Positions 3,193 through 23,234 of a DNA stretch of 23,234 nucleotides are shown here, piece by piece. Positions within the stretch are counted from its first letter, which is position 1; every line of letters begins with the position of its first letter. The notes beneath the pieces were generated by a model. It was not told where the DNA came from, did not search any database, and worked only from the letters and a program-made list of their open reading frames with translations. This DNA comes from Bacteroidales bacterium (GTDB taxonomy: Bacteria; Bacteroidota; Bacteroidia; Bacteroidales; UBA932): NCBI GenBank assembly GCA_017483985.1, contig JAFUUB010000112.1, positions 1 to 23,234 of the forward strand, in the 5' to 3' direction. A program made the position numbers and the translations under genes.

Positions 3193-3211
3193 TCCTTAAT
3201 CCGAATTCGAT

Positions 3212-4591: not shown

Positions 4592-4616
4592 TCCGAGTCT
4601 TACCTTCATCCTGAAA

Positions 4617-4651
4617 AGGAGCCGGTCCCAGTGGACTGGCTCCTCTTTTTT
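4617..4651 (+). terminator. Intrinsic terminator of SusC/SusD unit 1
   Basis: A 12-bp stem, AGGAGCCGGTCC (4617-4628) with GGACTGGCTCCT (4633-4644), has a single G-U pair and a CAGT tetraloop. It is followed by C and six T (4646-4651). This is a textbook rho-independent terminator just downstream of the SusD stop. Confidence 0.9.
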
Positions 4652-4799
4652 GTTTACCGGTCTGCTTCAGGTTACGATTAATTAGCTTCCGGGCGCTTTC
4701 TGTGCCATCGGTAACCGTTCCCGCCGGCTGCCGGTTAATAATTATTCAAAAAAGTGGGTTTTGTCCTTGAAAACCGTTTTGGAAGGCGTTGTAAGGCTG

Positions 4800-4831
4800 T
4801 TTGGATTAATTGAAAAAGATTATTATTTTTG
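4800..4831 (+). promoter_or_regulatory. Bacteroidetes-type promoter of SusC unit 2
   Basis: TTTG at 4800-4803 and TATTTTTG at 4824-4831 are separated by exactly 20 nt. Both match the Bacteroidetes consensus TTTG-N19-21-TAnnTTTG with no mismatch. Predicted start near 4838 gives a leader of about 90 nt before the ATG at 4926. This is the strongest promoter match found in the window and would drive the five-gene unit 4926-14282. Confidence 0.8.
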
Positions 4832-4885
4832 AAGGACTTTTGTTAAAGTGCGGATTGTATCCTAACGGCTACATTCGCAGACGGA

Positions 4886-4902
4886 TTGAATAACTTATTC
4901 AA
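4886..4902. promoter_or_regulatory. 17-bp palindrome in the leader of SusC unit 2
   Basis: TTGAATAA (4886-4893) and TTATTCAA (4895-4902) form a perfect inverted repeat around one C, ending 24 nt before the ATG at 4926. As DNA it could be an operator. As RNA the loop would be very tight, so a dimeric protein site is the more natural reading. The symmetry is seen directly; the function is a guess. Confidence 0.4.
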
Positions 4903-4925
4903 TATTAATAATTCAACCATTGCTT

Positions 4926-7900: not shown

Positions 7901-8264
7901 GGTGCCGGGCGATGAGGAGAAGACGACCATCCCGGTCATCGCCAGTTCCTGGCAGAACCGCATCTATTCCAGCGCGGGTGCCTACCTGAGCTATGCGTAC
8001 AACGCCTACAACTATTCGACGGAGCGGATTGCCAAGGGTGACTTCATCCGCATGAAGGAACTCTCCCTTTCCTACGATTTCCCGAAGACCGTGACGGATG
8101 CCCTGCATGTCGGCACGCTCGGACTCAAGCTCCAGGCTACCAACCTCTTCCTGATCTATGCCGACAAGAAACTCAACGGCCAGGATCCGGAATTCTTCAA
8201 TACCGGCGGTGTGGCGGTCCCGCTGCCTAAGCAGTTCACCCTTACCCTCAAGGTCGGTATTTAA
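4926..8264 (+). CDS. SusC/RagA-family TonB-dependent outer-membrane transporter (unit 2)
   Basis: This 1112-residue TonB-linked receptor is the import channel of the second uptake system. I chose the ATG at 4926 over the in-frame TTG at 4920 because the signal peptide then reads MEKIRFFLTALLVFVTAGIVSAQ, ending SAQ. A carboxypeptidase-regulatory-like domain follows (about 26-100) with the NFEIPNVP...VVVTFMGYKD pattern. The TonB-box region EVLEGAIATG is divergent compared with the usual LDEVVVVGYG. The plug includes RSLEGRVAGVSVQ, ...LWVVDGVIM and GARAMAGVIVVTTKKG. A long barrel ends TLTLKVGI. Length fits SusC. It is the first gene of a five-gene unit, with SusD 19 nt downstream. It is clearly a different subfamily from the transporter at 130-3192. 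Confidence 0.95.
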   Translation: MEKIRFFLTALLVFVTAGIVSAQNRTVKGNVTALSDGEPVVGAYVQVEGTRIGSITDLDGNFEIPNVPSSAKYVVVTFMGYKDARVEIGPNIQVALEDDAEVLEGAIATGMYNVDRRLNTGSAAKVSAAEAQLNGIADVSRSLEGRVAGVSVQNVSGTFGTAPKIRVRGATSIYGSSKPLWVVDGVIMEDVVDVSADELSSGDASTLISSAIAGLNSDDIESFDILKDGSATSIYGARAMAGVIVVTTKKGKAGQSRINYTGEYTYRLKPRYSTFNIMNSQDQMEIYQELQQKGYLNYAETANAMDSGIYGKMYQLISTYNATSGRFGLENTEAAKNAYLRAAEFRNTDWFDLLFNDSIQHNHSVSVSGGTEKATYYASLSVLQDPGWTKQSKVQRYTANVNSTYRFSDKLSLNLISNASYRLQRAPGTINNEWDVVSGEVKREFDINPYSYALNTSRALDPDEFYTRNYAPFNIVNELENNYIDLNVTDFRVQGELKFKPFSHLELSGLAAYKRTSTSQEHYILDGANQALAYREMSTAAIQRANPFLYTDPENPYATPVTVLPVGGIFDRTDNSINGWDIRVTANYNNTFARNHIVNLFGGMEVNSNDRHNVWFRGWGMQYDFGEIASYDYHVFKKGAEENTQYFTLGNTHSRSAAFFANGTYSYKGRYTLNGTVRYEGTNSLGKSRTARWLPTWNVSGAWNVHEESFMKGLYPTLSHLSLKASYSLTGDRPSVTNSRVVIAATNPWRPFAGDKESVLYISALANGDLTYEKKHEINIGMEAGFLDNRINFTFDWYKRNNYDLIGPVTTQGIGGQIDKFGNVASMKSDGFEISLTTTNIKKRDFSWTTNFIFSHSRNEVTELDNDVRMMDLIAGSGFTRPGYPVRSLFSIPFQGLNSEGLPTFINEKGETTVSSIYFQERDEEKLKFLEYSGSVDPTDVGSLGNVFSYKGFKLNVFITYSFGNVIRLDPVFRSTYDDLNSMPKEFRNRWTVPGDEEKTTIPVIASSWQNRIYSSAGAYLSYAYNAYNYSTERIAKGDFIRMKELSLSYDFPKTVTDALHVGTLGLKLQATNLFLIYADKKLNGQDPEFFNTGGVAVPLPKQFTLTLKVGI

Positions 8265-8283
8265 TGAATAGGAGATTTAGCGT

Positions 8284-9945
8284 ATGAAAACCAATAGATT
8301 TTCCCTTGTTCTTCTGACCCTTGCTGCCGGCCTCGCGTTTGCGGCCTGCAACAAGTTCCTGGATGAAATGCCGGACAACCGTACGGAGATCGATTCCGTC
8401 GAGAAGATCCGGGCCCTCCTGGGCGGAGCGTATATGTCCAGTACCTATCTGACATTCAACGAATATATGTCGGATAACGTGGACAACCTCGGCGACGACA
8501 ATCCGGGTACGAACCGGTTCATCGACCAGTGCTACCGCTGGGAGGATATCACCGAGGTGGCCAATGACTGCCCCAAGTATTTCTGGGACGACGGTTACAA
8601 TGTGATCGCCCATGCCAACCAGGCCCTGGAGGCCATCAAGGAGATGAGCGGTTCCAGCGACCTGGATGACGATGCGGTCGTCGCAGCCGGCCTGCAGGCG
8701 GAGATGGCCGAGGCCCTGCTCTGCCGTGCCTATGCCCATTTCATGCTGGTCAACGAGTTCTGCCTGAATTACAACAAGCAGACCAGCGAGACCGACCTGG
8801 GTATTCCCTACATGGAAGAGGTGGAGGCCGAACTCAACCCCCAATATGAGCGTGGAAACGTCGCCCATGTCTATGAGATGATCGACCGTGACCTGCAGAA
8901 GGCCCTCCCGTATGTCAGCGAGGCCTATTACAAGGTTCCGAAGTACCATTTCAACGTCCGTGCGGCTTACGCTTTCGCGGCCCGTTTCTACCTCTTCTAT
9001 GAAGAGTGGGACCTCGCCGCAGAATATGCGACCAAATGCCTGGGCTCCCAGCCGGAGAAGGTGCTGCGCGACTGGAAATCCCGCAATGCACTTGAAAAGG
9101 ACCAGGACGTCAAATCCAACGATTTCATCAATTCTTCGTACGATACGAACCTGCTGATGCTGACGGGATATACGTCCTTCGGTAACTATTTCGGTTATCC
9201 GGGCATCACCAAGTATTCCCATGATTCCTACCTCTCGTTTACGGAGGTCGCCTATGCGAAGAATGTCTGGGGGAATACCCAGACCGGTTGGCGCAATGTC
9301 AACGCCTGGTACTGGGATGGGCCGGAATGGTACAGCGGAAGCACGTACGACCAGATCGCCTATTTTAAGATTCCGTATCTGTTCGAGTATACGGACCCGG
9401 TAGCCCGCATCGGTTATGCGCACGCCGTGTATCCGGCCCTTACGATGGACGAAACCCTGCTGACCCGGGCCGAGGCCTATGTCATGCTGGGAAAATACGA
9501 CGAGGCCGCCGCCGACCTCAATACGTGGGCCCACAACATCCTGAAGCCGGATTACTTCAAGACGACGCTGACGGCCGACGTCATTACGGAGTTCTACTCC
9601 AAGCTGGACTACTGGACCCCGGATGTGCCGACGATCAAGAAGAAACTGAATCCCGCCTTCTCCATCGGTGAAGACGGCGGCCGTCAGGAAAGCATGCTGC
9701 AGTGCGTGCTCGGTTTCAAACGGATCGAGAACATGGCCCAGGGCCTCCGCTGGCTGGATGTCAAGCGCTACGGTATTGAAATCACACGCCGTACCATGCA
9801 GCCCGACCCGAATGCCGGTGAGTACGATGCCGGTTTCAAGGTTCTGAACGGCCAAGTGGATATCCTCAAGAAGGATGATCCGCGCCGGGCCATCCAACTT
9901 CCGCCGGAGGTTATCGCCGCCGGTCTGACCCCGAATCCCCGTTAA
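8284..9945 (+). CDS. SusD-like surface ligand-binding lipoprotein (unit 2)
   Basis: This 553-residue lipoprotein is the SusD partner of the preceding transporter. The signal peptide has lipobox FAAC with lipidated Cys at residue 22, followed by NKFLDEMPDNR, the typical SusD start (a 'KFLD..P' motif after the Cys). The helical body includes a TPR-like LTRAEAYVMLGKYDEAAADLN segment. The C-terminal part carries LGFKRIENMAQGLRWLDVKRYG, the SusD family R/W/D-K-R signature, and ends in DPRRAIQLPPE. Length and layout fit the family. It is separated by 19 nt from SusC and 18 nt from the metallopeptidase gene, so co-translation is likely. Ligand unknown. Confidence 0.93.
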   Translation: MKTNRFSLVLLTLAAGLAFAACNKFLDEMPDNRTEIDSVEKIRALLGGAYMSSTYLTFNEYMSDNVDNLGDDNPGTNRFIDQCYRWEDITEVANDCPKYFWDDGYNVIAHANQALEAIKEMSGSSDLDDDAVVAAGLQAEMAEALLCRAYAHFMLVNEFCLNYNKQTSETDLGIPYMEEVEAELNPQYERGNVAHVYEMIDRDLQKALPYVSEAYYKVPKYHFNVRAAYAFAARFYLFYEEWDLAAEYATKCLGSQPEKVLRDWKSRNALEKDQDVKSNDFINSSYDTNLLMLTGYTSFGNYFGYPGITKYSHDSYLSFTEVAYAKNVWGNTQTGWRNVNAWYWDGPEWYSGSTYDQIAYFKIPYLFEYTDPVARIGYAHAVYPALTMDETLLTRAEAYVMLGKYDEAAADLNTWAHNILKPDYFKTTLTADVITEFYSKLDYWTPDVPTIKKKLNPAFSIGEDGGRQESMLQCVLGFKRIENMAQGLRWLDVKRYGIEITRRTMQPDPNAGEYDAGFKVLNGQVDILKKDDPRRAIQLPPEVIAAGLTPNPR

Positions 9946-9963
9946 TCCTTAATTCCGACTATC

Positions 9964-10881
9964 ATGAAAAAGTATATTGCATACATTTTGCTGCTGGGTG
10001 TCGCCGCGTTTACGCTGGCGGCCTGCCAGGAAGACCTGATGCAGGAGGAAAGCGTTATCAAGGATTCCGCCGTGGAGAAAAATGCCTTTGACGAGTGGCT
10101 GGAAACCAATTTCCTGAAGCCGTACAACATCGACTTCAAGTATCGCTTTGAACTCAACGAGTCCGATTTGGGCTACTATACCGTTCCGGCGGACTACAAT
10201 GCCTCCATCATCTATGCCCACCTGGTGAAATACCTCTGCATCGATACCTATGACGAAGTCGCTGGTGTGGATTTCACCCGGGGCTATTTCCCGAAGATGT
10301 TCTTCCTGATCGGCGAATGGGAGTACCGCAACAACGGCTCCTTCGTCCTGGGTACGGCCGAAGGCGGAAAGAAGATCATGCTTTCCGGCGTGAACTATCT
10401 GCCGCAGTATTTCGCGCGCCTGTCCGGAGATGAACTCAGTGAGGTCATCAACTACTATTACATCAAGACGATCCACCACGAGTTCACCCATATCCTGAAC
10501 CAGAACAAACTGTTCTCGGATTCGTTCAAATCGATTACGGCGTCTACCTATGTGGCCGACGCGGCCTTCGATACGGATGATCTCTACCAGCAGCGTGGTT
10601 ACATCACCGCTTACGCCCAGACCAACCCGGACGAAGATTTTGCGGAACTGCTTTCCGAGTATGTTACGCACGACCAGGCCTGGTGGGAGGAGCAGCTGGC
10701 CAACGGTTCCGCGGACGGTGCGGACGGCGGCGCCCTGATGACGGCCAAGATGGACATTGTCCGTGACTATATGCAGAATTCCTGGAACATCAACTTGGAC
10801 GAGCTGCGCGCTACGGTCCTTCGCCGTACGGCGGATGTTTCCGCCGGGAAGGTTGATCTTACCGATATCAGTATCAAATAA
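9964..10881 (+). CDS. Sus-associated HExxH zinc-metallopeptidase-like lipoprotein
   Basis: This 305-residue lipoprotein resembles the substrate-import-associated zinc metallohydrolase lipoproteins encoded with SusC/SusD in Bacteroidetes (family recognised from memory, not searched). The signal peptide ends in lipobox LAAC with Cys 21. The zinc motif HEFTH is at residues 172-176, inside IHHEFTHILNQ. About 40 residues downstream, EDFAELLSEY (around 214-223) offers acidic candidates for a third zinc ligand, Glu218 being the likeliest. The protein is probably anchored to the outer membrane, where it could cleave or bind a peptide-containing ligand for the SusC/SusD pair. It sits 18 nt after SusD and 12 nt before the next gene. 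The catalytic residues appear intact; the substrate is unknown. Confidence 0.85.
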   Translation: MKKYIAYILLLGVAAFTLAACQEDLMQEESVIKDSAVEKNAFDEWLETNFLKPYNIDFKYRFELNESDLGYYTVPADYNASIIYAHLVKYLCIDTYDEVAGVDFTRGYFPKMFFLIGEWEYRNNGSFVLGTAEGGKKIMLSGVNYLPQYFARLSGDELSEVINYYYIKTIHHEFTHILNQNKLFSDSFKSITASTYVADAAFDTDDLYQQRGYITAYAQTNPDEDFAELLSEYVTHDQAWWEEQLANGSADGADGGALMTAKMDIVRDYMQNSWNINLDELRATVLRRTADVSAGKVDLTDISIK

Positions 10882-10893
10882 AAGGACAAGGAT

Positions 10894-12192
10894 ATGAAAC
10901 TGAAGAATATATTTGCTTTTTCGGTCGCCGCTTTTTCGCTCCTGGCCCTGTCTTCCTGCCTGAAAGACCAGGAGGATGTGTTCGAGAGGGGATCCGCTGA
11001 CCGCATGTCCGATTACCTTGAGGAAGTACGGTCCACCCTGAAGGCCCCGAAGTATGGCTGGAAGATGGCCTACTATCCGGGTGCCGACTATGCTGCCACC
11101 AATTTTACCCTGATCTTCGAGGACCAGTATGTGACGGCCGCGCACGAGAGCGCTCCGGATGCGGCTGAACGTTCGACCTATAAGTTGACGACCGACGACG
11201 GTGCCGTGCTCTCCTTCGATACGTACAATGTGCTCCTGCACGCGTATGCGACCCCGGACAGCAAGAAATATCAGGCCAAGGGTGGTGATTTCGAGTTCGA
11301 GATCATCGGCCTGGCCAAGGACCAGGTCACACTTCGCGGCAAGCGTTCCCGCAACCTGTGCATCCTGCGCCCGCTGGACAAACCGGGAAAGGACTTCCTG
11401 AAGGCGGTCAATGAGATGAACCTGTCGTTTGACATTGCGGCGGTTTCCGCCACCATCACCAACGGTCTGGTCGAGGGTTTCCTCGATGCCGGCAAACGCC
11501 GGATGTCCATCGGACGTGCCGGTGCGCCGGATAACGAGATGATGACGATCCGCTATATCGTTCAGGAAGACGGTATCCGCCTGTATTCCCCGACCACCAT
11601 CCAGGGCGTTGAATTCGACGAACTTGTCTTTGACAAGAAGGCGGGCACCCTTACCGGTTCCGGCGTTGTGTTCAACAAGATGATTCCGGAAGGCTGGGTC
11701 TCCTATTCCAGCTATCTTGGCAAGTACACCGTCAACTCCACCGTAGGCTATTTCAGCCCGTTTACGATTGAGTTCAAGCAGCTTGAGTACGGTATCTCCT
11801 ACGAGGTCGAAGGACTGATGCGCACCTATAAACCGGTTATCGACTACGAAGGCGGCCGTGGTACCCTGAATTGGGTTGTTCAGGCTGTCGGAGGCTCCGG
11901 CAGTGTGGTTTACTACTTGACTCCCTGGTCTTTGGCTGAAAATGGTTCTCTTAATTGGCGGGTTGAAGGTGCCGGTTTGCTTGGCCGGGTAGATGACAAT
12001 ACCAAACCGGACTTTACCATTTCGTTTGAAGACAACGGCGTTTGGGAAGACCACAAGGCGGACAGTTGGCTGATATGGGGAGCAACGGGCGACACGAGCG
12101 CAGGCGGTTGCACGGATAGCAATTATTATTTCTTCGGGACGAATAACTATCAGTTCCCGGGTCCTTTCACCTTCACCAAGATTAAAGAGTAA
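10894..12192 (+). CDS. DUF4302-type lipoprotein
   Basis: This 432-residue protein is a predicted lipoprotein with lipobox LSSC (Cys 22). After the Cys, KDQEDVFERGSADRMSDYLEE and the KYGWKMAYYPG segment are typical of DUF4302 proteins, which accompany SusC/SusD and HExxH lipoproteins in Bacteroidetes. No catalytic motif is visible. The remainder is beta-rich and probably surface-exposed, so a ligand-binding or accessory role is likely but unproven. Gaps are 12 nt upstream and 5 nt downstream, which places it inside the operon. Codon choice changes in the last ~320 nt (about 11870-12190), with many more T-ending and TTG/AAT codons than the rest of the operon. Confidence 0.78.
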   Translation: MKLKNIFAFSVAAFSLLALSSCLKDQEDVFERGSADRMSDYLEEVRSTLKAPKYGWKMAYYPGADYAATNFTLIFEDQYVTAAHESAPDAAERSTYKLTTDDGAVLSFDTYNVLLHAYATPDSKKYQAKGGDFEFEIIGLAKDQVTLRGKRSRNLCILRPLDKPGKDFLKAVNEMNLSFDIAAVSATITNGLVEGFLDAGKRRMSIGRAGAPDNEMMTIRYIVQEDGIRLYSPTTIQGVEFDELVFDKKAGTLTGSGVVFNKMIPEGWVSYSSYLGKYTVNSTVGYFSPFTIEFKQLEYGISYEVEGLMRTYKPVIDYEGGRGTLNWVVQAVGGSGSVVYYLTPWSLAENGSLNWRVEGAGLLGRVDDNTKPDFTISFEDNGVWEDHKADSWLIWGATGDTSAGGCTDSNYYFFGTNNYQFPGPFTFTKIKE

Positions 12193-12197
12193 GGCTT

Positions 12198-14282
12198 ATG
12201 AAAAGATTTTTCACATTGATATTCGTTGCGCTTTCCGCCCTTGTCCTGGCGGGATGTGCGCAGGAGCAGCCTGACGGAGCCGAATACCTGGTTGACAACA
12301 GCCTGGGTATCCTGAGCCGCGATGTGTTCTTCCAGCCGGGCGGCGGGACGGGATCCATCGTCGTGGATACGGAAGGCACGGTGACCGCCTCTTCCAACAA
12401 GGATTGGCTGACGGTCTCGGTGAACGGAAGCACGGTCGAACTGACGGCCGCCAAGAACCCGGACATCGAGAGCCGGTACGCCGAAGTGACCATCAAGAGC
12501 GGCGAATCCGGTGCGACGGTCATTGCCCAGCAGTATGGCTACAAGACCGTTTCCTTCTCAGGGAATGACATCGTCGCCAGCGGTAAGTCCCAGACACATT
12601 CCTTCCTGTACACCTATGAGGAAGACATGGTCGTTTCCTCCGATGCGGACTGGATCAAGGCTTCCGTCGCGACGGAGAACGACCAGCAGTCCGTGAAGAT
12701 CGAACTGGCCGAGAACGGTACGGGCGCCGTCCGTACGGGCAAGGTCAGCTGGGAGCTCGGAATGGAGAGCGGCGAGATCAACGTCAAGCAGTTCCCGAAC
12801 TTCGCCGTAAACGAAGCCTGGACGATGGAGTATGTCCGGGATGAAGAAACCAACTCGATCTTCGATGTCGAAGGCGTCGAGGGCTCCTACTTGGTGGGTA
12901 TGCTGACGCAGGCCCAGTTCAAGTCGAAGTATGACGGATCCTTTGAGACCTATGCTTTCGACGTGGCTGCCGCCGCCGATCCTACGGCCCTGTTCGACCA
13001 TGTGGGCGAGATTCCGTGGGCCTTCCTGGCTACCGGTATCTACGAGGCCATCCTCGTCGGTGTCGATGCGAACAACGATCCGACCGGCGAGTACAACTAC
13101 TATGAGATCGAGATTGCCCGTGAGGATGTCCGTACTCCTTATGAGAAGTGGTTGGGCAAGTGGGAAGTCACACGTCAATCTGTGACCGACACATGGGAGA
13201 TTACCGAAAATGTTTTCGGAGAATCCTTCTATATCGCAGGTATCGATGGTAATTCGACGGCCCTGGCCGGAGTGAAGGCAGTCGCCAAGTTCAACAGCGC
13301 GGACAATACCATTACGATCAGATCGCAGACGAATCTGGGTACATATACGAGCAACTCCGGAGAGAATTGTATCATCAATCTCTACGCCTTGTACAATGAA
13401 AGCAGCAGTATCATCGGTGGTGAGCATGATTGTGCGACATTGACGGCTGATGAGAAATTTGAAACGGGAACCATTACCTCTGCCGGAACGGTCACTCCCA
13501 GTGGTGGAAGTGCTACTCCGGTGACGGGAATCGTCTATTTCGCTCATCCGGAGGGTTCCAACAATGGTTATGTTTTCGACAATCAGATTTTCTACAAGTG
13601 GCCGGAAACGATGACAAAAATCGAAGACGGTTCCTCCTCCGGTGGCGGAGAAGGCGGTGGTGAAGGCGGCGGTTCCTATGCCGACTGGCTGGGTACCTGG
13701 AATCTCTCTGCCGGTTCCCTGTCGGTGAGCGAGAATGAAGCGGGGAAATCCTATACCGTCGTTTATTCCGGCTGGGAAGATGTGGAGTTCAGTACGAATT
13801 TCGATGCTTCTACCGGTGATATGGTATTCACGTACCAGCTCTTGTTCGAGTATGATATCGATGAGTATTACCTGACTGGCGTGGAAACTGTTGGCGAGAG
13901 CCGGTATGTCCGGTTCGGCGATCCCAACAAGGGCAATGAGATCGCGCGCGCAAAAATGTCCGGATCAATGGCAACGATAACAGGTGCCACCTATACTTCC
14001 GACGATGAGGGTAGCGTGAATGTCCAGGGTCTCGGTTTCCGGGACTATCAGGTCGAGGATACTGCCGATTATGACAAAGGCTGGTATCGGTTGACCGGAT
14101 ACGACGATATCGCCCTTCCAGCCTCTGCCTCTAAATCCGGTGCCGGAGTCATGCAGAAAGCACAGTCTTGGAACGGCGGTTTCTCCGTATCGAAATCTTG
14201 GATAGGGAGGGGGCTCGCTCCGAGAAGCACGTCTCCTTATCGCCCCGGGGTGCATCCCATGAAGATGTTTGTCGCGGAGTAA
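12198..14282 (+). CDS. BACON-domain lipoprotein with duplicated C-terminal domain
   Basis: This 694-residue protein is a predicted surface lipoprotein (lipobox LAGC, Cys 20). A BACON domain spans about 38-114, with the W-L-T-V...AEVTIKSGE...VIAQQYG pattern. A second BACON-like domain follows at about 117-205. Two related beta-rich domains begin YEKWLGKWEVT at 315 and YADWLGTWNLS at 494, probably lipocalin-like. They are joined by a Gly/Glu/Ser linker at about 478-493 (three GGGE/GGGS units). BACON domains are thought to bind glycoprotein or carbohydrate ligands, so this is a likely capture module for the unit. It is the last gene, followed after 22 nt by a terminator. The final ~40 residues are basic and less structured but end GVHPMKMFVAE before a clean stop, so I take them as genuine. 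Confidence 0.8.
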   Translation: MKRFFTLIFVALSALVLAGCAQEQPDGAEYLVDNSLGILSRDVFFQPGGGTGSIVVDTEGTVTASSNKDWLTVSVNGSTVELTAAKNPDIESRYAEVTIKSGESGATVIAQQYGYKTVSFSGNDIVASGKSQTHSFLYTYEEDMVVSSDADWIKASVATENDQQSVKIELAENGTGAVRTGKVSWELGMESGEINVKQFPNFAVNEAWTMEYVRDEETNSIFDVEGVEGSYLVGMLTQAQFKSKYDGSFETYAFDVAAAADPTALFDHVGEIPWAFLATGIYEAILVGVDANNDPTGEYNYYEIEIAREDVRTPYEKWLGKWEVTRQSVTDTWEITENVFGESFYIAGIDGNSTALAGVKAVAKFNSADNTITIRSQTNLGTYTSNSGENCIINLYALYNESSSIIGGEHDCATLTADEKFETGTITSAGTVTPSGGSATPVTGIVYFAHPEGSNNGYVFDNQIFYKWPETMTKIEDGSSSGGGEGGGEGGGSYADWLGTWNLSAGSLSVSENEAGKSYTVVYSGWEDVEFSTNFDASTGDMVFTYQLLFEYDIDEYYLTGVETVGESRYVRFGDPNKGNEIARAKMSGSMATITGATYTSDDEGSVNVQGLGFRDYQVEDTADYDKGWYRLTGYDDIALPASASKSGAGVMQKAQSWNGGFSVSKSWIGRGLAPRSTSPYRPGVHPMKMFVAE

Positions 14283-15205: not shown

Positions 15206-16561
15206 TTACAATTTGTTCTGCTTGAGGTTCTCGATGTACCGGTCGATGCGGTGCAACTCGTTCGGGATGCGGATGCTCTGCGGGCAGTGGGCCATGCACT
15301 GTTCGCAGCCGATGCAGTGGCTGGCCTGGCGCAGGGTCGGGACCGCCTTGTCGTAGCTGGTCAGGAAGGCCTTGCGGAGCTTCTGGTAGTCTTTCTGCTC
15401 ACTGCTCTGCGGGACGCTGGCATTGTTGATCTGCTGGTTGTAATGGGCGAAGATGGTCGGAATATCGATACCATAGGGGCACGGCATGCAGTATTTGCAG
15501 TTGGTGCACGGGACAGTGGGATACTCGCGCATCAGTACGGCCATTTCTTCCATGAAAGCGAGCTCTGCTTCATCCATCGGATGGAAACCGCAGAAGGTCT
15601 TGCAGTTGTCGACCAGGTGCTCCATATAAGTCATGCCGCTCAGTGCTGTCAGGACCCGCGGATGGGATCCGACGAAACGGAAGGCCCAGGACGGGACGGA
15701 AGCATCGGGATCGCGTTCCTTGAACTTGGCGGCGACGTTCTGCGGGACGTTGCTGAGCTGGCCGCCCAGCAGCGGTTCCATGATGGTGATGGGAATCTCC
15801 AGTTCGTCCAGCTTGTTGTACAGGTACTCCGCATTGGTGTTGCGACGGGGATCGGCGTGGGTCCAGTCGACATAGTTCATCTGGATCTGGACGAAATCCC
15901 AGTGGTATTTCTCGTGGTAGGCCATGAGCTCGTCGAAGCCCTTCTGCTGGCCGTGGAAGGAGAAGCCCAGGTTGCGGATCCGGCCGGCTTCCCGCTCTTT
16001 CACCAGGTAGTCCAGCAGTCCGTTCTGGATAAACCGGCGCTGCAGGACATCTCCGCTGCCGACATTGTGCAGCAGGAAGTAGTCCAGATAGTCGGTCTGG
16101 AAATACTCCAGGGACTTGTGGTACATCTCGATGCCTTCCTCCAGGGTTGGCTGGAAACCGCGGGTGTTGGAAAGCTTGGTGGCGACATAGTAGCTGTCAC
16201 GCGGGTAACGGGCCAGGGATTTGCCGGTGGCCGCCTCGCTCTGTCCCTGCAGGTAGACCGGAGCGGAGTCATAGTAGTTTACGCCATGGGCCATGGCGTA
16301 GTCGATCAGTTCGTCGACCTTTGCCTGGTCCACGATGTCGCGGCCGTTCTCATCTTTGATCATCGGCCAGCGCATGCAGCCGTAGCCGAGCAGGGAGACC
16401 TTGTTCCCATGCGGGTCGGTCCGGTATTCCATCTCGCCGTCACCGGTCTGGAGGGCGGAAACGCCCGCTTTCTTCGGTGCGCAGGCCGCTGCGGCACCAA
16501 GGGCCAGGGCGCCGGCGCCGCTGACCTTCAGGAAATCTCTTCGGGTGATATTCTTTTCCAT
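15206..16561 (-). CDS. Tat-signal aldo/keto reductase with two C-terminal ferredoxin clusters
   Basis: This 451-residue protein resembles the COG1453-type aldo/keto reductases that carry 4Fe-4S clusters. I chose the ATG at 16561, 4 nt after the upstream stop, because it gives a twin-arginine signal RRDFLK (7-12). A hydrophobic stretch ending AAAAC follows, with Cys 27 in a possible lipobox. This implies export of the folded enzyme and perhaps a lipid anchor. The reductase tetrad is present: Asp98, Tyr103, Lys129 and His165. The C-terminal part binds two clusters, CTNCKYCMPCP (Cys 352, 355, 358, 361) and CIGCEQCMAHCP (Cys 416, 419, 422, 426). NADPH is not expected outside the cytoplasm, so electrons may arrive through the clusters from the polyferredoxin encoded just upstream. 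Substrate unknown. Confidence 0.9.
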   Translation of the reverse strand: MEKNITRRDFLKVSGAGALALGAAAACAPKKAGVSALQTGDGEMEYRTDPHGNKVSLLGYGCMRWPMIKDENGRDIVDQAKVDELIDYAMAHGVNYYDSAPVYLQGQSEAATGKSLARYPRDSYYVATKLSNTRGFQPTLEEGIEMYHKSLEYFQTDYLDYFLLHNVGSGDVLQRRFIQNGLLDYLVKEREAGRIRNLGFSFHGQQKGFDELMAYHEKYHWDFVQIQMNYVDWTHADPRRNTNAEYLYNKLDELEIPITIMEPLLGGQLSNVPQNVAAKFKERDPDASVPSWAFRFVGSHPRVLTALSGMTYMEHLVDNCKTFCGFHPMDEAELAFMEEMAVLMREYPTVPCTNCKYCMPCPYGIDIPTIFAHYNQQINNASVPQSSEQKDYQKLRKAFLTSYDKAVPTLRQASHCIGCEQCMAHCPQSIRIPNELHRIDRYIENLKQNKL

Positions 16562-16565
16562 AGGC

Positions 16566-17972
16566 TTAGTCTTTGATATGGACCTGGAGTCCGTTGACAT
16601 GGATGGCGCTGTACGGGCGGGACGGGCAGAGGTTCTCGCAGGCTCCGCAGCCGATGCACCTGCTTTCGTCGACCGCCGGGATCCGCAGGGAATCCGGATC
16701 GTCCGGGTTGAGGCGGACCATCATGATGGCGCCGACCGGGCAGTGGCGGGCGCAGTTGCCGCACTTGACGCCGTCTTTCTCGACGACGCAGAGGCTGCGG
16801 TCGACCGTTGCGGTGCCGATGTGGAACTGGGTCTTCTCTTCAGGGGTCAGGGGTTTGATGGCGCCGGCCGGACAGACCTCGGAGCATTTGACGCATTCGG
16901 GCCGGCAGTAGCCGCTCTCATAACCCATCTCCGGCTGCATGAGGTGCTCCAGGGAGGTGGAAGGACGCAGGACGTCGTTCGGGCAGTTGGACACGCACAG
17001 CTGGCAGGCGGTGCAGCGGCGGTAGAAATCCTTGACGCTCTCGGACCCGAACGGGGTCAGGGGCGTGGTCCGCTCGGGGTTTTTCTTGTCGAGGATGGTG
17101 GCCAGTCCGCCGTCGCCTTTCGGCTGGGCTTTCAGGGCGGCCGAACCCACGGCGATGGCGGCGCCCGTCATGAAGGCGCGGCGGCCAGCGTCGACAGTCT
17201 TTGGCGCCGGCTCCTGCGCCGGGGCGGACTTGCCGTAGGCAAAGCGGTATTTCATCGCGCCGAACTTACAGTTGCCCAAGCAGTTGAAGCAGTCTACGCA
17301 GCGGCTGTAGTCAATCTTCTTGTGGTCGATATCGATACAGGAAGCTTTGCATTTCTTCTCGCAGAGATGGCAGCTCTTGCACTTTTCCGTGTCGATCATC
17401 GGGCGGAAGAGGGCGAAGCGGGAGAAGAAGCTCAGGGTCGTACCGACCGGGCAGATGACATTGCAGTAGGTACGGCCTCCGAGCCAGGCCAGCACCGTTA
17501 CGACGAGGAAGGTCACGGCTGCGATGATGACCGTCCCGACGGAGGCCGGGGCGACGAGGGTGCGGACCATGCGGCCGTAGGCGCTGTACGGGGCCAGGAT
17601 GGCCACGCAGACCTGGATCCCGGCGATCAGGGCGATGACGAAGAGCGCCCAGATCCCGTAGCGTACCCATTTGTTCTCGGGTTTGAACTGGAAACGGGCT
17701 TTCTTGCCTTTGCGCAGGCCGCTCAGCCAGGACACGAAATCCTGGTACACACCCATCGGGCAGATGACCGAGCAGTAGATGCGGCCGCAGACGAGGGTCA
17801 GTACGACCAGCAGGAGGATCACGCCGACATTGACGGCAAGTACGGCGGGAAGGAACTGGATCTTGGGCAGCCATCCGAACCATTTCGTCAGTTCACCCGA
17901 GATGCCCAGGAAGAGCAGGGTGATGGCGATGAGGAAGACGGCGGCCAAGGCGATACGGGTTTTCCTTAGCAT
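16566..17972 (-). CDS. NapH/NapG-like membrane polyferredoxin with six predicted 4Fe-4S clusters
   Basis: This 468-residue protein looks like a fusion of a NapH-type quinol-linked membrane subunit and a NapG-type ferredoxin. Four membrane helices (about 7-24, 41-63, 105-127, 146-166) carry the two NapH-like motifs GRIYCSVICP (Cys 67/71) and GRTYCNVICP (Cys 170/174). Two clusters follow at Cys 198-208 and 225-235. Then comes RRAFMTG (Arg 264/265) with a hydrophobic stretch to about 281, resembling an internal twin-arginine signal. Four more Cys groups lie at 320-330, 356-367, 395-411 and 439-449. NapGH proteins pass electrons from quinol to a periplasmic reductase. The co-transcribed Tat-signal aldo/keto reductase is the obvious acceptor here. 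No nap catalytic genes are nearby, so nitrate reduction is not implied. Confidence 0.88.
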   Translation of the reverse strand: MLRKTRIALAAVFLIAITLLFLGISGELTKWFGWLPKIQFLPAVLAVNVGVILLLVVLTLVCGRIYCSVICPMGVYQDFVSWLSGLRKGKKARFQFKPENKWVRYGIWALFVIALIAGIQVCVAILAPYSAYGRMVRTLVAPASVGTVIIAAVTFLVVTVLAWLGGRTYCNVICPVGTTLSFFSRFALFRPMIDTEKCKSCHLCEKKCKASCIDIDHKKIDYSRCVDCFNCLGNCKFGAMKYRFAYGKSAPAQEPAPKTVDAGRRAFMTGAAIAVGSAALKAQPKGDGGLATILDKKNPERTTPLTPFGSESVKDFYRRCTACQLCVSNCPNDVLRPSTSLEHLMQPEMGYESGYCRPECVKCSEVCPAGAIKPLTPEEKTQFHIGTATVDRSLCVVEKDGVKCGNCARHCPVGAIMMVRLNPDDPDSLRIPAVDESRCIGCGACENLCPSRPYSAIHVNGLQVHIKD

Positions 17973-18083: not shown

Positions 18084-18761
18084 TCAGTCCAGGCAGACCA
18101 GCACCCGTGAAGGATGTGAAAAATGCAGGCGGACAATGTCTTCGGATGCCCGGTTGAGGGTCGCCTTCCACCAGTTGTCGAAAACGACGTCATCCGTCGG
18201 CCAGACCAGGCCCTCGGACTTGAGGGTCAGGCTGTTGTCGGGGCTGAAAAGGGAAATGCGCCGGCCTTCTCCCACGGCCAGTTCACACGTGTCGGTCACG
18301 GCGAACATCGTCCCGTAGTCGGAGACCATGTCCAGGACCGGTCCGCGGCTCTGCTCCGGCAGGCCGGCCAGGCCGAAGAGGCGGGGATATTCCATCAGCA
18401 GGGACAGGTTGCCGACCGTATGGTCTTCCCGCCGGCCGGTGCCGCCCAGGATGTGGATTGTGGAGACCTCCGGATGGTGCGTCAGGACATACCGGAGCGC
18501 TTTGGTCTGGTCGTTGTCGTCCTGTTCCTCAATCCGGGTGATCAGCCCGGCGTACCGTTTCTGCAAGGCAGGGGAGAGGGTGTCCATGTCCCCGACGACC
18601 GCAGCCGGCAACCGCTCTGCGCCGAAGCGTCTGCGGGTATGGCGCAGGTATTTGACGAGGGCCCCGTCGCAGCAGACGACCGCGTCGGCTGTATCCAGCA
18701 GGTACAGCGGATAGGCCTTGCGGGGGAAATCCCCGTCACAGAGGATGACGACGGTATCCAT
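18084..18761 (-). CDS. thiN: Thiamine pyrophosphokinase
   Basis: This 225-residue enzyme transfers pyrophosphate from ATP to thiamine, making thiamine diphosphate in the cytoplasm. Family motifs are present in order: CCDGA near 30, VGDMDTL near 56 (the GDxDS-type metal site), EEQDDNDQTKAL near 78 (the D-x-TD-type site) and GGTGRREDHTVGNLSLL near 104. The C-terminal substrate-binding region is also complete. I chose the ATG at 18761 because the domain starts immediately (MDTVVILCDGDFP) and the start overlaps the preceding TGA by 1 nt, implying translational coupling. No riboswitch or thiamine transporter gene lies next to it. It is the last gene of the housekeeping unit. The name thiN is used for this function in Bacillus. 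Confidence 0.92.
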   Translation of the reverse strand: MDTVVILCDGDFPRKAYPLYLLDTADAVVCCDGALVKYLRHTRRRFGAERLPAAVVGDMDTLSPALQKRYAGLITRIEEQDDNDQTKALRYVLTHHPEVSTIHILGGTGRREDHTVGNLSLLMEYPRLFGLAGLPEQSRGPVLDMVSDYGTMFAVTDTCELAVGEGRRISLFSPDNSLTLKSEGLVWPTDDVVFDNWWKATLNRASEDIVRLHFSHPSRVLVCLD

Positions 18762-21199
18762 CAGGCGCGGGTCTTGGCAATCTCGGCCGATGAGGTGCCC
18801 GGGGTGGTTCCGTAGGTCTGGGGATCCCGGAATCCGAGCAGGAAGGCGCTGACGTCCATGCGTTTCTTGCCCGCGAGCTGGATGTCCTTGAGGGCGATGG
18901 CCCCGTCGGCCGTCTTGATCCACAGATAGGTCTTTCCGTCGGATAGGACGGAACCGGGCGCGGCAGCAGGAACACCGTCCGTGACCGGCGCGGCGCCGAA
19001 GATCTTCAGCTGCGTGGGCTGGCCGCCGTCGCGGACCAGTTCGGTAAAGGCGGTCGGATACGGGCTCAGGCCGCGGATCAGGTTGTATACCTGGGTCGTA
19101 GGGGCGTTCCAGTCGATGTGGCAGAGCTCCCGGGTCAGTTTCGGGGCCGGTTTGAGGACCTCGCTACCCTGGATGAAGCTCCGCTGGACGCGGGTCTCGA
19201 TGTTGTGCTGGATGATGCCTTCGACCGTCTGGACGACCAGGTCGGCGCCGATCGGCATGAGCTTGTCATGCAGGTCGCCGGCGGTCTCGTCGGGTCCGAT
19301 GCGGCATTCCTGGCGGAGCATGATGCCGCCCGTATCGATGTCCTTGTCGATCATGAAGGTCGTCACGCCGCTCATCCGCTCGCCGTTGATGACGGCCCAG
19401 TTGATCGGGGCCGCGCCGCGGTACTGCGGCAGCAGGGCAGCATGGAGGTTGAACGTGCCCAGCGGCGGCATGGTCCAGACCGCTTCCGGCAGCATCCGGA
19501 AGGCCACGACCACGAACAGGTCGGCTTTCCAGGCCGCGAGCTGCTCCAGGAACTCCGGATCCTTGAGCTTGAGGGGCTGGAGGACCGGGATCCCATGCTC
19601 CACGGCATATTTCTTGACGGCGCTTTCATTCACCTTGAGGCCGCGGCCGCTCGGTTTGTCGGCCACAGTGACCACGCCGACCACCTTGTATCCGTTCTGG
19701 ATCAGGGCTTCGAGCGGGGCGACGGCGAATTCCGGCGTGCCCATGTAGACGATGCGGGTTTGTTTGAAGACTCCCATGATTTTACTCTTGAATTTGCGCC
19801 ACCACGTGCCGAACTGCTCGGTGTTGATCTTGGCGTCGTTGATGGCCCGCCACGACAGGTACAGGCCGATGGGCAGCAGGACGGCGGTCGAAACGAAGAC
19901 GCCGGTCCAGGCTGCGGCCTTGCCGTCATTGGCGAGCTTGATGCCGGTGATGTCCACGACCCAGTACAGGACGAAGAAGAGGACGGCGATGATCAGCGAC
20001 ACGCCGAGGCCGGTCCGTTTGTTGGCGAAGGCTCCCAGCGGGGCACCGATGACGAAGAGGATGAAGCAGGCGAGGGCCTGAGCGAACTTGCGCAGGAGCT
20101 CCACGTCGGTCTTGTCCGAGATCTTCCGGTTGTAGCGCGTCTCCTCGTTGAAATTGTCCATCATCACGGCCAGTTCCCCGGCCGATGCGGTGGCGGAGGT
20201 GTAGGCCTGTTTCTCGGCGGAGAGGGTCTTCCATTCCATCGGCTCCTCGGGCTGGAAGGGCGTCCGTCCGGCGAAATGCTTCGACGTGTCCAGTTGCTCC
20301 TGGTAGCGGAGCGCACGCCGTTCCCAGTAGGCCCGGCGCTGGATCTGGAGCAGCGAATCCCATTCGTGCTGCAGGGAATCCTTGCCGACCTTCAGGTGGG
20401 CGATGTCGCGGGACTTGACCTGGTCGCCGTAGCGGGCGCCGCTGGACTTCTGGAACGCGTAGTTCTCCAGCGGGATGATCATGCTCTGCTTCTCGAATTC
20501 GATCCGCTGCAGCTGCAGGGTCGTATCCCGGTATTTCATCGTGTTGGTTTCCTGGTAGTTGATGCCGCTGTACAGGTCGAAGGTGATGTAGTCCTTCGCC
20601 TTGGACATGCGCATCATCGCGGAATCCGCCAGCACGAGGCTGACGTTGCCCTGCTGGGCGGTATGGTCATACACGATGACCCCGTGCATCATCCCGGTCT
20701 CCTTGTCGCGGTCGTCGATCCGGAGGACATAGCCCTCGAGGCCGTCGTAGAAGGTACCGGTCGGGATGTTGATTTCGTTCTTGGTCTTGCCGATGTCGTC
20801 GCGCAGCGTATAGATCTGGTTGTAGGCGATCGGAACGAGGTTGTTGGCGGCGAAAAAGGCGCCGATGCTGATGATGACCGAAGTGATCATCAGGGGCATG
20901 AGCACCCGGCGCAGCGAGATGCCGGCCGACTTGATGGCGATCAGCTCGTTGTTCTCGGACATCCCGCCCAGGGTGAAGGTGGAGGCCAGCAGGGTGGCCA
21001 GCGGGAGGGAAAGCGGCAGCAGGGTCGCGCCGCCCCAGCCCATGAATTCCAGGATCACCTTGAAACTCAGGCCCTTGCCGACGAGTTCGTCAATATAGAC
21101 CCACAGGAACTGGAGCATCAGGATGAACACGACGACCACCAGCGTGCCGACAAACGGCCCGATGAACGCCTTGAGGATGAACTGGTCCAGTTTCTTCAT
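18761..21199 (-). CDS. fmt: LptF/LptG-type permease fused in frame to methionyl-tRNA formyltransferase
   Basis: One open frame of 812 residues contains two complete proteins. Residues 1-474 form an LptF/LptG (YjgP/YjgQ) permease, the inner-membrane subunit of lipopolysaccharide export. It has membrane helices at about 13-36, 58-80 and 100-122, and the cytoplasmic coupling motif SENNELIAIKSAGIS (about 81-95). A periplasmic domain (about 123-370) is followed by three more helices (about 372-391, 400-418, 428-450). Residues 475-812 form Fmt, which formylates initiator Met-tRNA. It begins MGVFKQTRIVYMGTPEFAV and has catalytic Asn584, His586 and Asp622, with the same spacing as Asn108/His110/Asp146 of the E. 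coli enzyme. The junction FKSKI-MGVF has no stop. Because the permease C-terminus is cytoplasmic, the fusion is topologically possible. An internal start at 19777 could also release free Fmt. Confidence 0.88.
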   Translation of the reverse strand: MKKLDQFILKAFIGPFVGTLVVVVFILMLQFLWVYIDELVGKGLSFKVILEFMGWGGATLLPLSLPLATLLASTFTLGGMSENNELIAIKSAGISLRRVLMPLMITSVIISIGAFFAANNLVPIAYNQIYTLRDDIGKTKNEINIPTGTFYDGLEGYVLRIDDRDKETGMMHGVIVYDHTAQQGNVSLVLADSAMMRMSKAKDYITFDLYSGINYQETNTMKYRDTTLQLQRIEFEKQSMIIPLENYAFQKSSGARYGDQVKSRDIAHLKVGKDSLQHEWDSLLQIQRRAYWERRALRYQEQLDTSKHFAGRTPFQPEEPMEWKTLSAEKQAYTSATASAGELAVMMDNFNEETRYNRKISDKTDVELLRKFAQALACFILFVIGAPLGAFANKRTGLGVSLIIAVLFFVLYWVVDITGIKLANDGKAAAWTGVFVSTAVLLPIGLYLSWRAINDAKINTEQFGTWWRKFKSKIMGVFKQTRIVYMGTPEFAVAPLEALIQNGYKVVGVVTVADKPSGRGLKVNESAVKKYAVEHGIPVLQPLKLKDPEFLEQLAAWKADLFVVVAFRMLPEAVWTMPPLGTFNLHAALLPQYRGAAPINWAVINGERMSGVTTFMIDKDIDTGGIMLRQECRIGPDETAGDLHDKLMPIGADLVVQTVEGIIQHNIETRVQRSFIQGSEVLKPAPKLTRELCHIDWNAPTTQVYNLIRGLSPYPTAFTELVRDGGQPTQLKIFGAAPVTDGVPAAAPGSVLSDGKTYLWIKTADGAIALKDIQLAGKKRMDVSAFLLGFRDPQTYGTTPGTSSAEIAKTRA

Positions 21200-21233
21200 A
21201 CGGAACTTCGCTACGTTTGGAATAAGGACGGAT

Positions 21234-23234
21234 TTACGCCGTGGCGAGTTCGACGAGTTTCTCGAGGGCGTCCTTGAGCCCGTCGGGATTCTTGCCGCCA
21301 GCCGTGGCGAGTCCGGGCTGTCCGCCTCCGCCGCCCTGGATGAACTTGGCGGCTTCGCGGATGTCCTTGCCCGCGTTCTTGCCCGCTGCGACCAGGTCGG
21401 CCGTATACATCAGCACCAGGTTCGGCTTGCCGTCGAACAGGTAAGCACCTGCCAGGACGAAGCCGGAAAGCTCTTTCTGGAGCAGGAGGGCGACGTTGCG
21501 GACCATGGCCGGGTCCATGCTGCGGTCGAAGGCGATGACCTTGCGGCCGCCGATTTCCTTCGCACCGGCGGCGAGGGCCTTGGCCAGCTGTTGTGCCTTC
21601 TCGGCCTGGAAGGCCTCGACCTCTTTCTTGAAGGCGGCATTCTCACCGATCATCTTCTCGATGGCGGCGGTCAGGTCCGGGGTGTTGTTGAAGAAGGTCT
21701 TGGCGCTGCGCAGGGCTTCCTGGGCGGCATAGACCACCTTTTCGGCCGCTTCGCCGGTCACGGCCTCGATGCGGCGTACGCCGGCGGCGATGGCGCTCTC
21801 GGAGACGATCTTGAAGAAGCCGATCCGTCCGGTGGCGGTGGCGTGGGTGCCGCCGCAGAGCTCGGTCGAGGGACCGAAGTTGACGACGCGGACGCGGTCG
21901 CCGTATTTCTCGCCGAAGAGGGCGATGGCGCCCATGGCATTGGCTTCCTCCATGGTGGCATCCCGTTTCTCGCAAAGCGGGAAGTCGCTGCGGATCAGCT
22001 GGTTGACACGTTTCTCAACTTCCATGATCTCTTCATCGGTCATCTTGGAGAAGTGGCTGAAGTCGAAGCGCAGGTAGTCCGCGCAGACATAGGAGCCTTT
22101 CTGCTCGACGTGGGTGCCGAGGACTTCGCGCAGGGCGGTGTCCATCAGGTGGGTAGCCGTATGGTTGGCGGCAATCTTCAGCCGGCGGTCGGCGTCGACG
22201 GAAAGGGTGAATGCCTGGGTGCCGTCCTGCGGCAGCCGTTCGGCGATATGGATGGTCAGGTTGTTTTCCTTGACGGTGTTGAGGATGGCGATCTTTTCGC
22301 CGCCCTCGGACTCGATCCAGCCCGTGTCGCCGACCTGGCCGCCCATTTCCGCATAGAACGGGGTGCGGTCGAAGACCAGCTGGAAGAGGGTCTTGTTCTT
22401 CTGCTTGACGGTGCGCTGCTTCAGCAGGACGGCGCCTTCGACGACGGTGGTGTCATAGCCGAGGAATTCGACTTCTTCGCCGCTATGGAACTCGGTCCAG
22501 TCGCCGAACTCGTTGGCGGTGGCGGCGCGGGCGCGCTCCTTCTGCTTGGCCAGCTCGGCCTGGAAGCCTTCCAGGTCGACGGTGTAGCCGCGCTCGGTGG
22601 CGATCAGTTCGGTCAGGTCGACCGGGAAGCCGTAGGTATCGTAGAGGACGAAGGCGTCGGCGCCGGCGATCTTTTTCGTGTCGGCGGCCTTGGCCATATA
22701 GTCGTCCAGCATGCGGATGCCGCGGTCGAGGGTGCGCAGGAAGGCCATGTCCTCTTCGCGGATGACGCTTTCGATCAGTTTCTGCTGGGCCGGGAGCTCC
22801 GGATAGGCGTCGCCCATGTCGGCGACGAGCTGGGGTACGAGGCGGCAGAGGAACGGTTCGGTGAAGCCGAGGAAGGTATAGCCGTAGCGGACGGCCCGGC
22901 GCAGGATGCGGCGGATGACGTAGCCGGCCTTGACGTTGGACGGCAACTGACCGTCGGCGATGGCGAAGGCGATGGCGCGGATGTGGTCGGCGCACACGCG
23001 CATGGCCACGTCGGTCTTTTCACCGTCATGGTATTTCTTGCCGCTGAATTCCTCCAGTTTGCCGATCAGGCCGCTGAAGACATCGGTTTCGTAGTTGCTG
23101 GTCTTGCCCTGGAGCACCATGCAGAGGCGTTCGAAGCCCATGCCAGTATCGATGTTCTTGGCCGGAAGCGGCTCGAGATGGCCGTCGGCCTTGCGGTTGT
23201 ACTGCATGAACACCAGGTTCCAGATTTCGATGAC
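21234..23234 (-). CDS. alaS: Alanyl-tRNA synthetase, 5' end outside the window
   Basis: The visible 666 residues are the C-terminal three quarters of AlaRS, which charges tRNA-Ala and edits mischarged Ser and Gly. The frame is open to the window edge, with VIEIWNLVFMQYNR as the first residues. By comparison with the usual length of about 870, roughly 200 N-terminal residues, including most of the catalytic core, lie beyond 23234. The end of the aminoacylation domain (NIDTGMGFERL) is followed by the tRNA-recognition region. The editing domain has HTATH near 22160 and its partner CGGTH near 21850, all zinc-ligand residues present. A C-Ala-type tail with GGGGGQPGLATAGGK ends at a normal TAA. The permease-Fmt gene starts 34 nt downstream, probably in the same transcript. 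Confidence 0.97.
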   Translation of the reverse strand, partial: VIEIWNLVFMQYNRKADGHLEPLPAKNIDTGMGFERLCMVLQGKTSNYETDVFSGLIGKLEEFSGKKYHDGEKTDVAMRVCADHIRAIAFAIADGQLPSNVKAGYVIRRILRRAVRYGYTFLGFTEPFLCRLVPQLVADMGDAYPELPAQQKLIESVIREEDMAFLRTLDRGIRMLDDYMAKAADTKKIAGADAFVLYDTYGFPVDLTELIATERGYTVDLEGFQAELAKQKERARAATANEFGDWTEFHSGEEVEFLGYDTTVVEGAVLLKQRTVKQKNKTLFQLVFDRTPFYAEMGGQVGDTGWIESEGGEKIAILNTVKENNLTIHIAERLPQDGTQAFTLSVDADRRLKIAANHTATHLMDTALREVLGTHVEQKGSYVCADYLRFDFSHFSKMTDEEIMEVEKRVNQLIRSDFPLCEKRDATMEEANAMGAIALFGEKYGDRVRVVNFGPSTELCGGTHATATGRIGFFKIVSESAIAAGVRRIEAVTGEAAEKVVYAAQEALRSAKTFFNNTPDLTAAIEKMIGENAAFKKEVEAFQAEKAQQLAKALAAGAKEIGGRKVIAFDRSMDPAMVRNVALLLQKELSGFVLAGAYLFDGKPNLVLMYTADLVAAGKNAGKDIREAAKFIQGGGGGQPGLATAGGKNPDGLKDALEKLVELATA

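What the first reader, a model, noticed from the sequence alone, without database searches (positions are those of the whole stretch)
18761..21199. In-frame fusion of an LptF/G lipopolysaccharide-export permease with methionyl-tRNA formyltransferase
Seen: one frame of 812 codons holds a full-length six-helix LptF/LptG protein followed directly by a full-length Fmt with its Asn-His-Asp catalytic set, joined by a short linker and no stop. Known: these are normally separate proteins, one membrane-bound and one soluble. Inference: the fusion would tether initiator-tRNA formylation to the inner membrane and couple the dosage of envelope export to translation initiation. Alternatively, an internal ATG at 19777 yields two products from one frame. 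A lost stop by a 1-nt indel is possible, because a TAA in another frame lies 8 nt before that ATG.
Basis: partly seen in the sequence, partly recalled or inferred. Interest (0 to 1): 0.72.

Follow-up and report, generated by a model that had tools for sequence, protein, structure and literature searches.

The report
LPS-export permease fused to initiator-tRNA formylase
In a group of mostly uncultured gut and rumen Bacteroidales, a membrane protein for exporting lipopolysaccharide and the enzyme that formylates the start tRNA are encoded as one continuous protein, a real and recurrent gene fusion whose benefit, if any, is unknown.

Summary
In detail: on the minus strand, 21199-18761 is one uninterrupted 812-codon frame with a complete LptF/LptG permease (residues 7-451) and a complete Fmt (482-793). 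It is not an indel artefact: the best 80 relatives kept from a genome collection all carry both halves in one open frame. In an even draw of the family of the window's nearest relative, 47 of 131 fetched loci are fused; 64 have separate same-strand genes, usually overlapping in another frame. Fmt is single-copy in 6 of 6 relatives checked. Fused rows need five changes on trees of each half and of both, and one fused clade is rejected (p 2e-7 to 4e-4): fusion arose repeatedly or was sometimes undone. The linker is about 30 residues, basic, predicted helical, under purifying selection, and matches the permease's own tail in length. Nine of 46 fused family rows have no start codon in the 40 codons before the Fmt core, so there Fmt seems to be made only as part of the membrane protein. 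For the window an internal ATG remains possible. Most likely: a bifunctional inner-membrane protein with Fmt on the cytoplasmic side. A benefit of tethering is unproven. My paper searches found no description.

The parts
18761..21199 (-). fused ORF, LptF/LptG-family permease plus methionyl-tRNA formyltransferase, 812 aa
   Evidence: 80 of 80 kept relatives fused
19847..21181 (-). LptF/LptG permease part (residues 7-451), six membrane segments and a large domain between the third and fourth; coupling-helix Glu85 (assigned by position) invariant
   Evidence: Pfam PF03739, hydropathy, alignment A1, model
19760..19846 (-). linker (residues 452-480), basic, predicted helix 460-478, dN/dS 0.156
18821..19756 (-). 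Fmt part (residues 482-793), catalytic Asn584/His586/Asp622
   Evidence: TIGR00460, Foldseek to 2fmt_A TMt 0.89, invariant columns
19775..19777 (-). in-frame internal ATG (M475), possible second start for Fmt; ATG at the same distance from the Fmt core in 48 of 80 relatives
21234..23234 (-). alanyl-tRNA synthetase (alaS), upstream gene, cut by the window end
   Evidence: Pfam
18084..18761 (-). thiamin pyrophosphokinase, downstream gene; its ATG overlaps the fusion's TGA by 1 nt
   Evidence: Pfam, sequence

Best explanation
One bifunctional inner-membrane protein. The N-terminal half is an LptF/LptG-family subunit of the Lpt exporter; its C-terminal tail, which faces the cytoplasm, runs on as a basic helical linker of about 30 residues into a complete Met-tRNA formyltransferase, the only Fmt gene seen in relatives. 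Formylation of initiator tRNA would therefore be done by an enzyme tethered to the inner membrane. The fusion most likely arose from a tightly packed operon (alaS - lptF/G - fmt - thiamin pyrophosphokinase) in which the lptF/G end and the fmt start already overlap in different frames, so that a small frame change can join them with little extra sequence; this probably happened more than once in the family. Shown: the single frame, its recurrence, that the fused rows are not one clade, linker constraint, single-copy fmt in relatives, conserved catalytic residues. Inferred: that the full-length protein is made and both halves work, cytoplasmic location of Fmt, and any benefit.
For: 80 of 80 kept genome-contig loci fused in one stop-free frame; 47 of 131 fetched loci of the family draw fused, 64 separate on the same strand (63 with the stop within 83 nt of the Fmt core, one, L217, 979 nt away), 20 with no LptF/G detected beside fmt. 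Fmt single copy: 6 of 6; among fused genomes one match each, except G459, whose two matches lie 43 nt apart in one gene with a run of N. Separate pairs: 46 of 63 overlap, stop-to-core phase 1 or 2 in 58 of 63. Gene order alaS - lptF/G - fmt - thiamin pyrophosphokinase with overlaps of 4, 14 and 1 nt in a separate relative (L257); the same order around the fusion in L258 and the window. Five changes on the concatenated tree and on each half's tree; one clade of fused rows rejected on concatenated data. Linker dN/dS 0.156 over 44 pairs; length 31-33 aa in 24 of 24 rows of the window's group. No ATG/GTG/TTG in the 40 codons before the Fmt core in 9 of 46 fused family rows and 5 of 80 loci. Deformylase and LpxC present in 10 of 10 genomes tested, 8 fused and 2 separate.
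Against: No protein-level data. The window has an in-frame ATG (19777) just before Fmt, so a free Fmt could also be made. Proteolysis in the linker (pLDDT in the 50s) is not excluded. The change counts cannot tell repeated fusion from fusion plus later splits; well-supported branches force only three changes, two on the Fmt tree and two in the reduced set. L169 is a single genome whose nearest relatives (79-89% identity) are separate LptF/G proteins, so it may be an assembly indel. The permease half is below the NCBIfam LptF and LptG cut-offs. Relatives are mostly metagenome assemblies, and no whole genome is held for the window, so single-copy Fmt is shown only in relatives.
Confidence: 0.7

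Rival explanations
1. One frame, two products: the full-length protein plus a free Fmt started at the internal ATG 19777 (M475), perhaps the relic of the old fmt start codon.
For: The ATG is in frame 8 codons before the Fmt core; 48 of 80 relatives have ATG at that exact place; in 61 of 64 separate rows the nearest fmt start is 2-10 codons before the core.
Against: 10 of 80 relatives and 20 of 46 fused family rows have no ATG/GTG/TTG within 20 codons of the core, 5 of 80 and 9 of 46 none within 40, so a second product is not a general need. Rarer start codons and ribosome-binding signals were not tested.
Confidence: 0.3
2. The fusion is neutral: overlap of neighbouring genes makes joining easy, both halves work independently, and the tether does nothing.
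For: Separate relatives already overlap in 46 of 63 pairs; fused and separate states coexist and interchange within one family.
Against: The fusion has been kept over long divergence (44-57% identity to the window in the farther fused groups) and linker length is nearly fixed in the window's group; neither proves benefit, since undoing a fusion needs a new stop and a new start.
Confidence: 0.45
3. Sequencing or assembly indel removed a stop in this contig.
For: A TAA lies in another frame 4 nt before the ATG.
Against: 80 of 80 kept loci fused; a protein listed at 100% identity on two contigs, and 26 listed proteins of 91-96% identity and the same 812 residues.
Confidence: 0.01
4. The protein is cut in the linker after synthesis, giving a normal permease and a soluble Fmt.
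For: The linker is among the least certain parts of the model, pLDDT 53-63, and has the highest dN/dS of the six segments compared.
Against: No cleavage site was sought; the linker is still under purifying selection and predicted helical.
Confidence: 0.12

Closest known systems
Methionyl-tRNA formyltransferase (Fmt; E. coli 1fmt/2fmt, TIGR00460)
   Same: Whole two-domain fold and catalytic Asn/His/Asp; TIGR00460 over cut-off; 36% identity and TMt 0.89 to 2fmt_A.
   Different: The solved Fmt chains are 314-322 aa and stand alone; here Fmt hangs on a six-helix membrane protein.
LptF/LptG permeases of the LPS exporter LptB2FG
   Same: PF03739 over the whole half, six membrane segments, coupling-helix glutamate (E84/E88 of E. 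coli LptF/LptG, PMC5082905, passages seen; here Glu85, assigned by position).
   Different: The C-terminal tail continues into an enzyme; below the NCBIfam cut-offs for LptF and for LptG; by sequence solved LptF/LptG chains match only residues 3-220 at E 1e-6 or weaker.
Overlapping, translationally coupled gene pairs (PMC10666635, abstract and passages seen)
   Same: Separate relatives mostly have lptF/G and fmt overlapping by short stretches, the type that the paper finds enriched for subunits of complexes.
   Different: Here the overlap has gone one step further, to a single frame.
ArnA (formyltransferase joined to a dehydrogenase; description partly recalled)
   Same: A formyltransferase domain in a bifunctional protein (NCBIfam and PDB matches).
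   Different: Sugar-nucleotide substrate and unrelated partner; no membrane half.

Membership tests
Fmt | TIGR00460 equivalog score | tested here: met
   234.2 bits against cut-off 201.5
Fmt | Catalytic Asn-His-Asp set and N- and C-domains | tested here: met
   N584, H586, D622 invariant in 93 sequences; both Pfam domains; fold
Fmt | Formylates Met-tRNA initiator | not testable with these tools
   No assay; deformylase present in 10 of 10 genomes tested, 8 of them fused, is consistent
LptF/LptG permease | PF03739 over gathering score, full length | tested here: met
   228.9 bits, profile 2-353 of 353
LptF/LptG permease | NCBIfam LptF (TIGR04407) or LptG (TIGR04408) equivalog score | tested here: not met
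   158.1 of 230 and 95.8 of 240 bits; so LptF/LptG family, not assigned to either
LptF/LptG permease | Six membrane segments and coupling-helix glutamate | tested here: met
   the glutamate is assigned by position
LptF/LptG permease | A second LptF/G partner gene in the genome | tested here: met
   Second, separate locus in 10 of 11 relatives (not in G452); not testable in the window's own genome
True gene fusion | One stop-free frame conserved in relatives, linker under protein-level constraint | tested here: met
   80 of 80 kept loci, dN/dS 0.156
True gene fusion | Full-length product exists | not testable with these tools
   No proteomics

The most novel reading that the evidence does not exclude
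Several Bacteroidales lineages have independently put their only initiator-tRNA formylase on the LPS exporter, so that start-tRNA formylation is done at the inner membrane; convergence would point to a selected physical or regulatory link between envelope export and translation initiation.
Probability: 0.25. Interest if true: 0.75.

Novelty: new variant of a known kind. Interest (0 to 1): 0.52.

Why it matters
Fmt is known as a stand-alone enzyme feeding translation initiation. Lineages in which it seems to be made only as part of a membrane protein are natural experiments on whether formylation can be spatially confined, and on why genes for envelope export and translation share an operon in these bacteria. 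The mixture of fused, overlapping and separate states within one family is also a clear system for how overlapping operon genes turn into fusion proteins. Of the 12 fused proteins with a source-given name in the listings are called methionyl-tRNA formyltransferase and 1 lipopolysaccharide export permease (names cut in the listing), so the fusion is hidden in annotation.

Tried and rejected
Rejected: indel artefact for the window. Rejected for relatives: a second free Fmt that would make the fused one redundant (one Fmt match in 6 of 6). Rejected: a single fused clade (concatenated data only). Doubted: L169 as a real fusion, since its close relatives are separate; L176 recurs at 99% identity in another source. 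Long open frames reported at fmt in two genomes of the class draw are not this fusion: in G696 a TGA ends the ORF upstream of a separate fmt, and in G551 fmt is a separate 307-codon ORF. Spread beyond the family: in the listed part of the order draw only G001 and G014 had a fused-length frame; G132 and G374, also in that draw but not in its listed part, are fused too; all four belong to the family. In the listed part of the class draw only G001 matched over both halves. Both listings were cut, so rare fusions elsewhere are not excluded. Foldseek's 50 shown rows cover formyltransferases only, so the permease half has no structural match shown. Papers: no description of the fusion in the listings (titles and abstract starts seen); passages were read in three papers only; many subscription journals are not held. 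One search was a search on gene overlap and fusion in general.

Rows dropped: the tree used 120 rows (57 fused: 46 of the family draw, the window and 10 loci; 63 separate); left out were 20 loci without LptF/G found beside fmt, L205 (core motif not found) and L217 (LptF/G 979 nt away). Five of the 136 genomes with a match were not fetched for the draw: G001 (fused, represented by L001) and G519, G422, G460, G435 (match at or near a contig end). The mixture-model tree used 76 of 120 rows (44 removed, near copies and some farther rows), the last one 67 of 120. The dN/dS run used 115 of 127 fused rows (those whose start pattern was found) and 44 pairs. Alignment A1 used 93 sequences picked by hand from those held. 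L043 and L057 come from one assembly, so the 80 loci are not 80 genomes.

Full report
What is there. On the minus strand, 21199 to 18761 is one frame of 812 codons. Residues 7-451 match the LptF/LptG family over the whole profile, 482-657 and 687-790 the two Fmt domains. The Fmt half passes the NCBIfam fmt cut-off, while the permease half is below the LptF and LptG cut-offs and is left as LptF/LptG family. Upstream lies alaS (ends 21234), downstream a thiamin pyrophosphokinase whose ATG shares one base with the fusion's TGA.

It is not an artefact. A search of the genome collection found 227 stretches that encode relatives; the best 80 were kept, titled Bacteroidales, Bacteroidia or (five) Candidatus Cryptobacteroides, and 80 of 80 have both halves in one stop-free frame. 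That ranking favours full-length matches, so it shows recurrence, not frequency. The protein database lists one protein at 100% identity and 26 at 91-96%, of the same 812 residues, from other contigs.

How far it reaches. In the GTDB family of the nearest genome (G001), 136 of 149 genomes drawn have a Formyl_trans_C match. I fetched 131 of these loci: 47 fused, 64 separate with LptF/G upstream on the same strand, 20 with no LptF/G found beside fmt. In the order draw (374 of 393 genomes with a Formyl_trans_C match) and the class draw (217 of 217 genomes with some match to the protein), the listed parts show the fusion only in that family; both listings were cut.

The separate state suggests how the fused one arose. 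In 46 of 63 separate pairs the fmt start codon (the ATG nearest the core, or GTG/TTG if none) lies before the end of the LptF/G stop, and the stop-to-core phase is 1 or 2 in 58 of 63. In L257 the operon reads alaS, lptF/G, fmt, thiamin pyrophosphokinase with overlaps of 4, 14 and 1 nt; the fused L258 has the same order. The LptF/G tail after the Pfam domain is 28-52 residues in 51 of 63 separate pairs (68-172 in the other 12), and the fused linkers are 31-47. So the linker looks like the permease's own tail. Short overlaps are reported to couple translation and to be enriched for subunits of complexes (PMC10666635, passages).

Repeated fusion. On the tree of both halves the fused state needs five changes, of which well-supported branches force three (120 rows; 76 rows with a mixture model). 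Each half alone also gives five (three forced on the permease tree, two on the Fmt tree). One clade of all fused rows is rejected (p 2e-7), also without L169 (p 6e-6) and without L169, L176 and seven other rows (three changes, two forced, p 4e-4). Linker lengths differ between groups: 31-33 in group I (24 rows, with the window), 42-43 in 20 of 22 of group II (34 in two), 46-47 in 8 of 9 of group III (35 in one). Parsimony cannot separate repeated gain from gain plus loss. L169 is a singleton whose 79-89% relatives are separate LptF/G proteins; L176 recurs at 99% identity.

Is Fmt made alone? The window has an ATG 8 codons before the Fmt core, as do 48 of 80 relatives. But 10 of 80 relatives and 20 of 46 fused family rows have no ATG, GTG or TTG within 20 codons, and 5 of 80 and 9 of 46 none within 40. 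In those, Fmt seems to be made only as part of the membrane protein. Fmt is single-copy in 6 of 6 relatives. A separate second LptF/G locus exists in 10 of 11 genomes, deformylase and LpxC in 10 of 10, eight fused and two separate.

Are both halves sound? In 93 aligned fused proteins the catalytic Asn584, His586, Asp622 and the coupling-helix Glu85 (assigned by position) are invariant; the role of that glutamate in E. coli is from PMC5082905 (passages). dN/dS (44 pairs of close fused rows) is 0.058, 0.103 and 0.045 in three permease segments, 0.052 and 0.112 in the Fmt domains and 0.156 in the linker. The AlphaFold model has mean pLDDT 83.0 and pTM 0.47, so both folds are fair to good and their mutual placing is not known; the linker is a helix at pLDDT in the 50s. 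Foldseek puts the Fmt half on E. coli Fmt with its tRNA, 2fmt_A, TMt 0.89. Hydropathy gives six membrane segments, and residues 450-482 hold 8 Lys/Arg against 2 Asp/Glu, which fits a cytoplasmic C-terminus.

Verdict. A real, conserved, recurrent fusion protein, most likely a membrane-tethered Fmt. That the tether matters is unproven; a neutral by-product of overlapping genes is about as likely. E. coli grows poorly without fmt while several other bacteria tolerate its loss (PMC7949028, passages), so the stakes in Bacteroidales are unknown.

Noticed in passing
window 130-14282, + strand: Two SusC/SusD-like pairs in a row (130-3192 with 3212-4591, 4920-8264 with 8284-9945), then a zinc metallopeptidase (Peptidase_Mx1), a DUF4302 protein and a BACON-domain protein: a nutrient-uptake type cluster.
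   Followed up: partly
window 15206-17972, - strand: An aldo/keto reductase with ferredoxin-type domains (15206-16600) and a polyferredoxin-like protein (16566-17972) overlap by 35 nt.
   Followed up: no
window 805-2967 minus and 19118-21277 plus: Very long ORFs (720 and 719 codons) opposite annotated-looking genes, probably shadows of codon composition.
   Followed up: no
L169 (G452:C52): Fused frame in a single genome whose close relatives are separate: either a very recent fusion or an assembly indel.
   Followed up: partly
G001:C19:60726-61172: Second peptide deformylase match in an open frame of 489 codons, possibly another fusion or just a long open frame.
   Followed up: no
G696:C57 (L255): The genome search gave an open frame of 734 codons for fmt, but a TGA lies between it and the ORF upstream.
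   Followed up: yes
L210 (G459:C77): Fused frame with a run of N in the Fmt C-domain and a frame change after it, so this copy is incompletely known.
   Followed up: partly
L043 and L057: Two different full fused copies (63% and 62% identity to the window) on two contigs of one assembly (SUG854): a second copy or a mixed bin.
   Followed up: no
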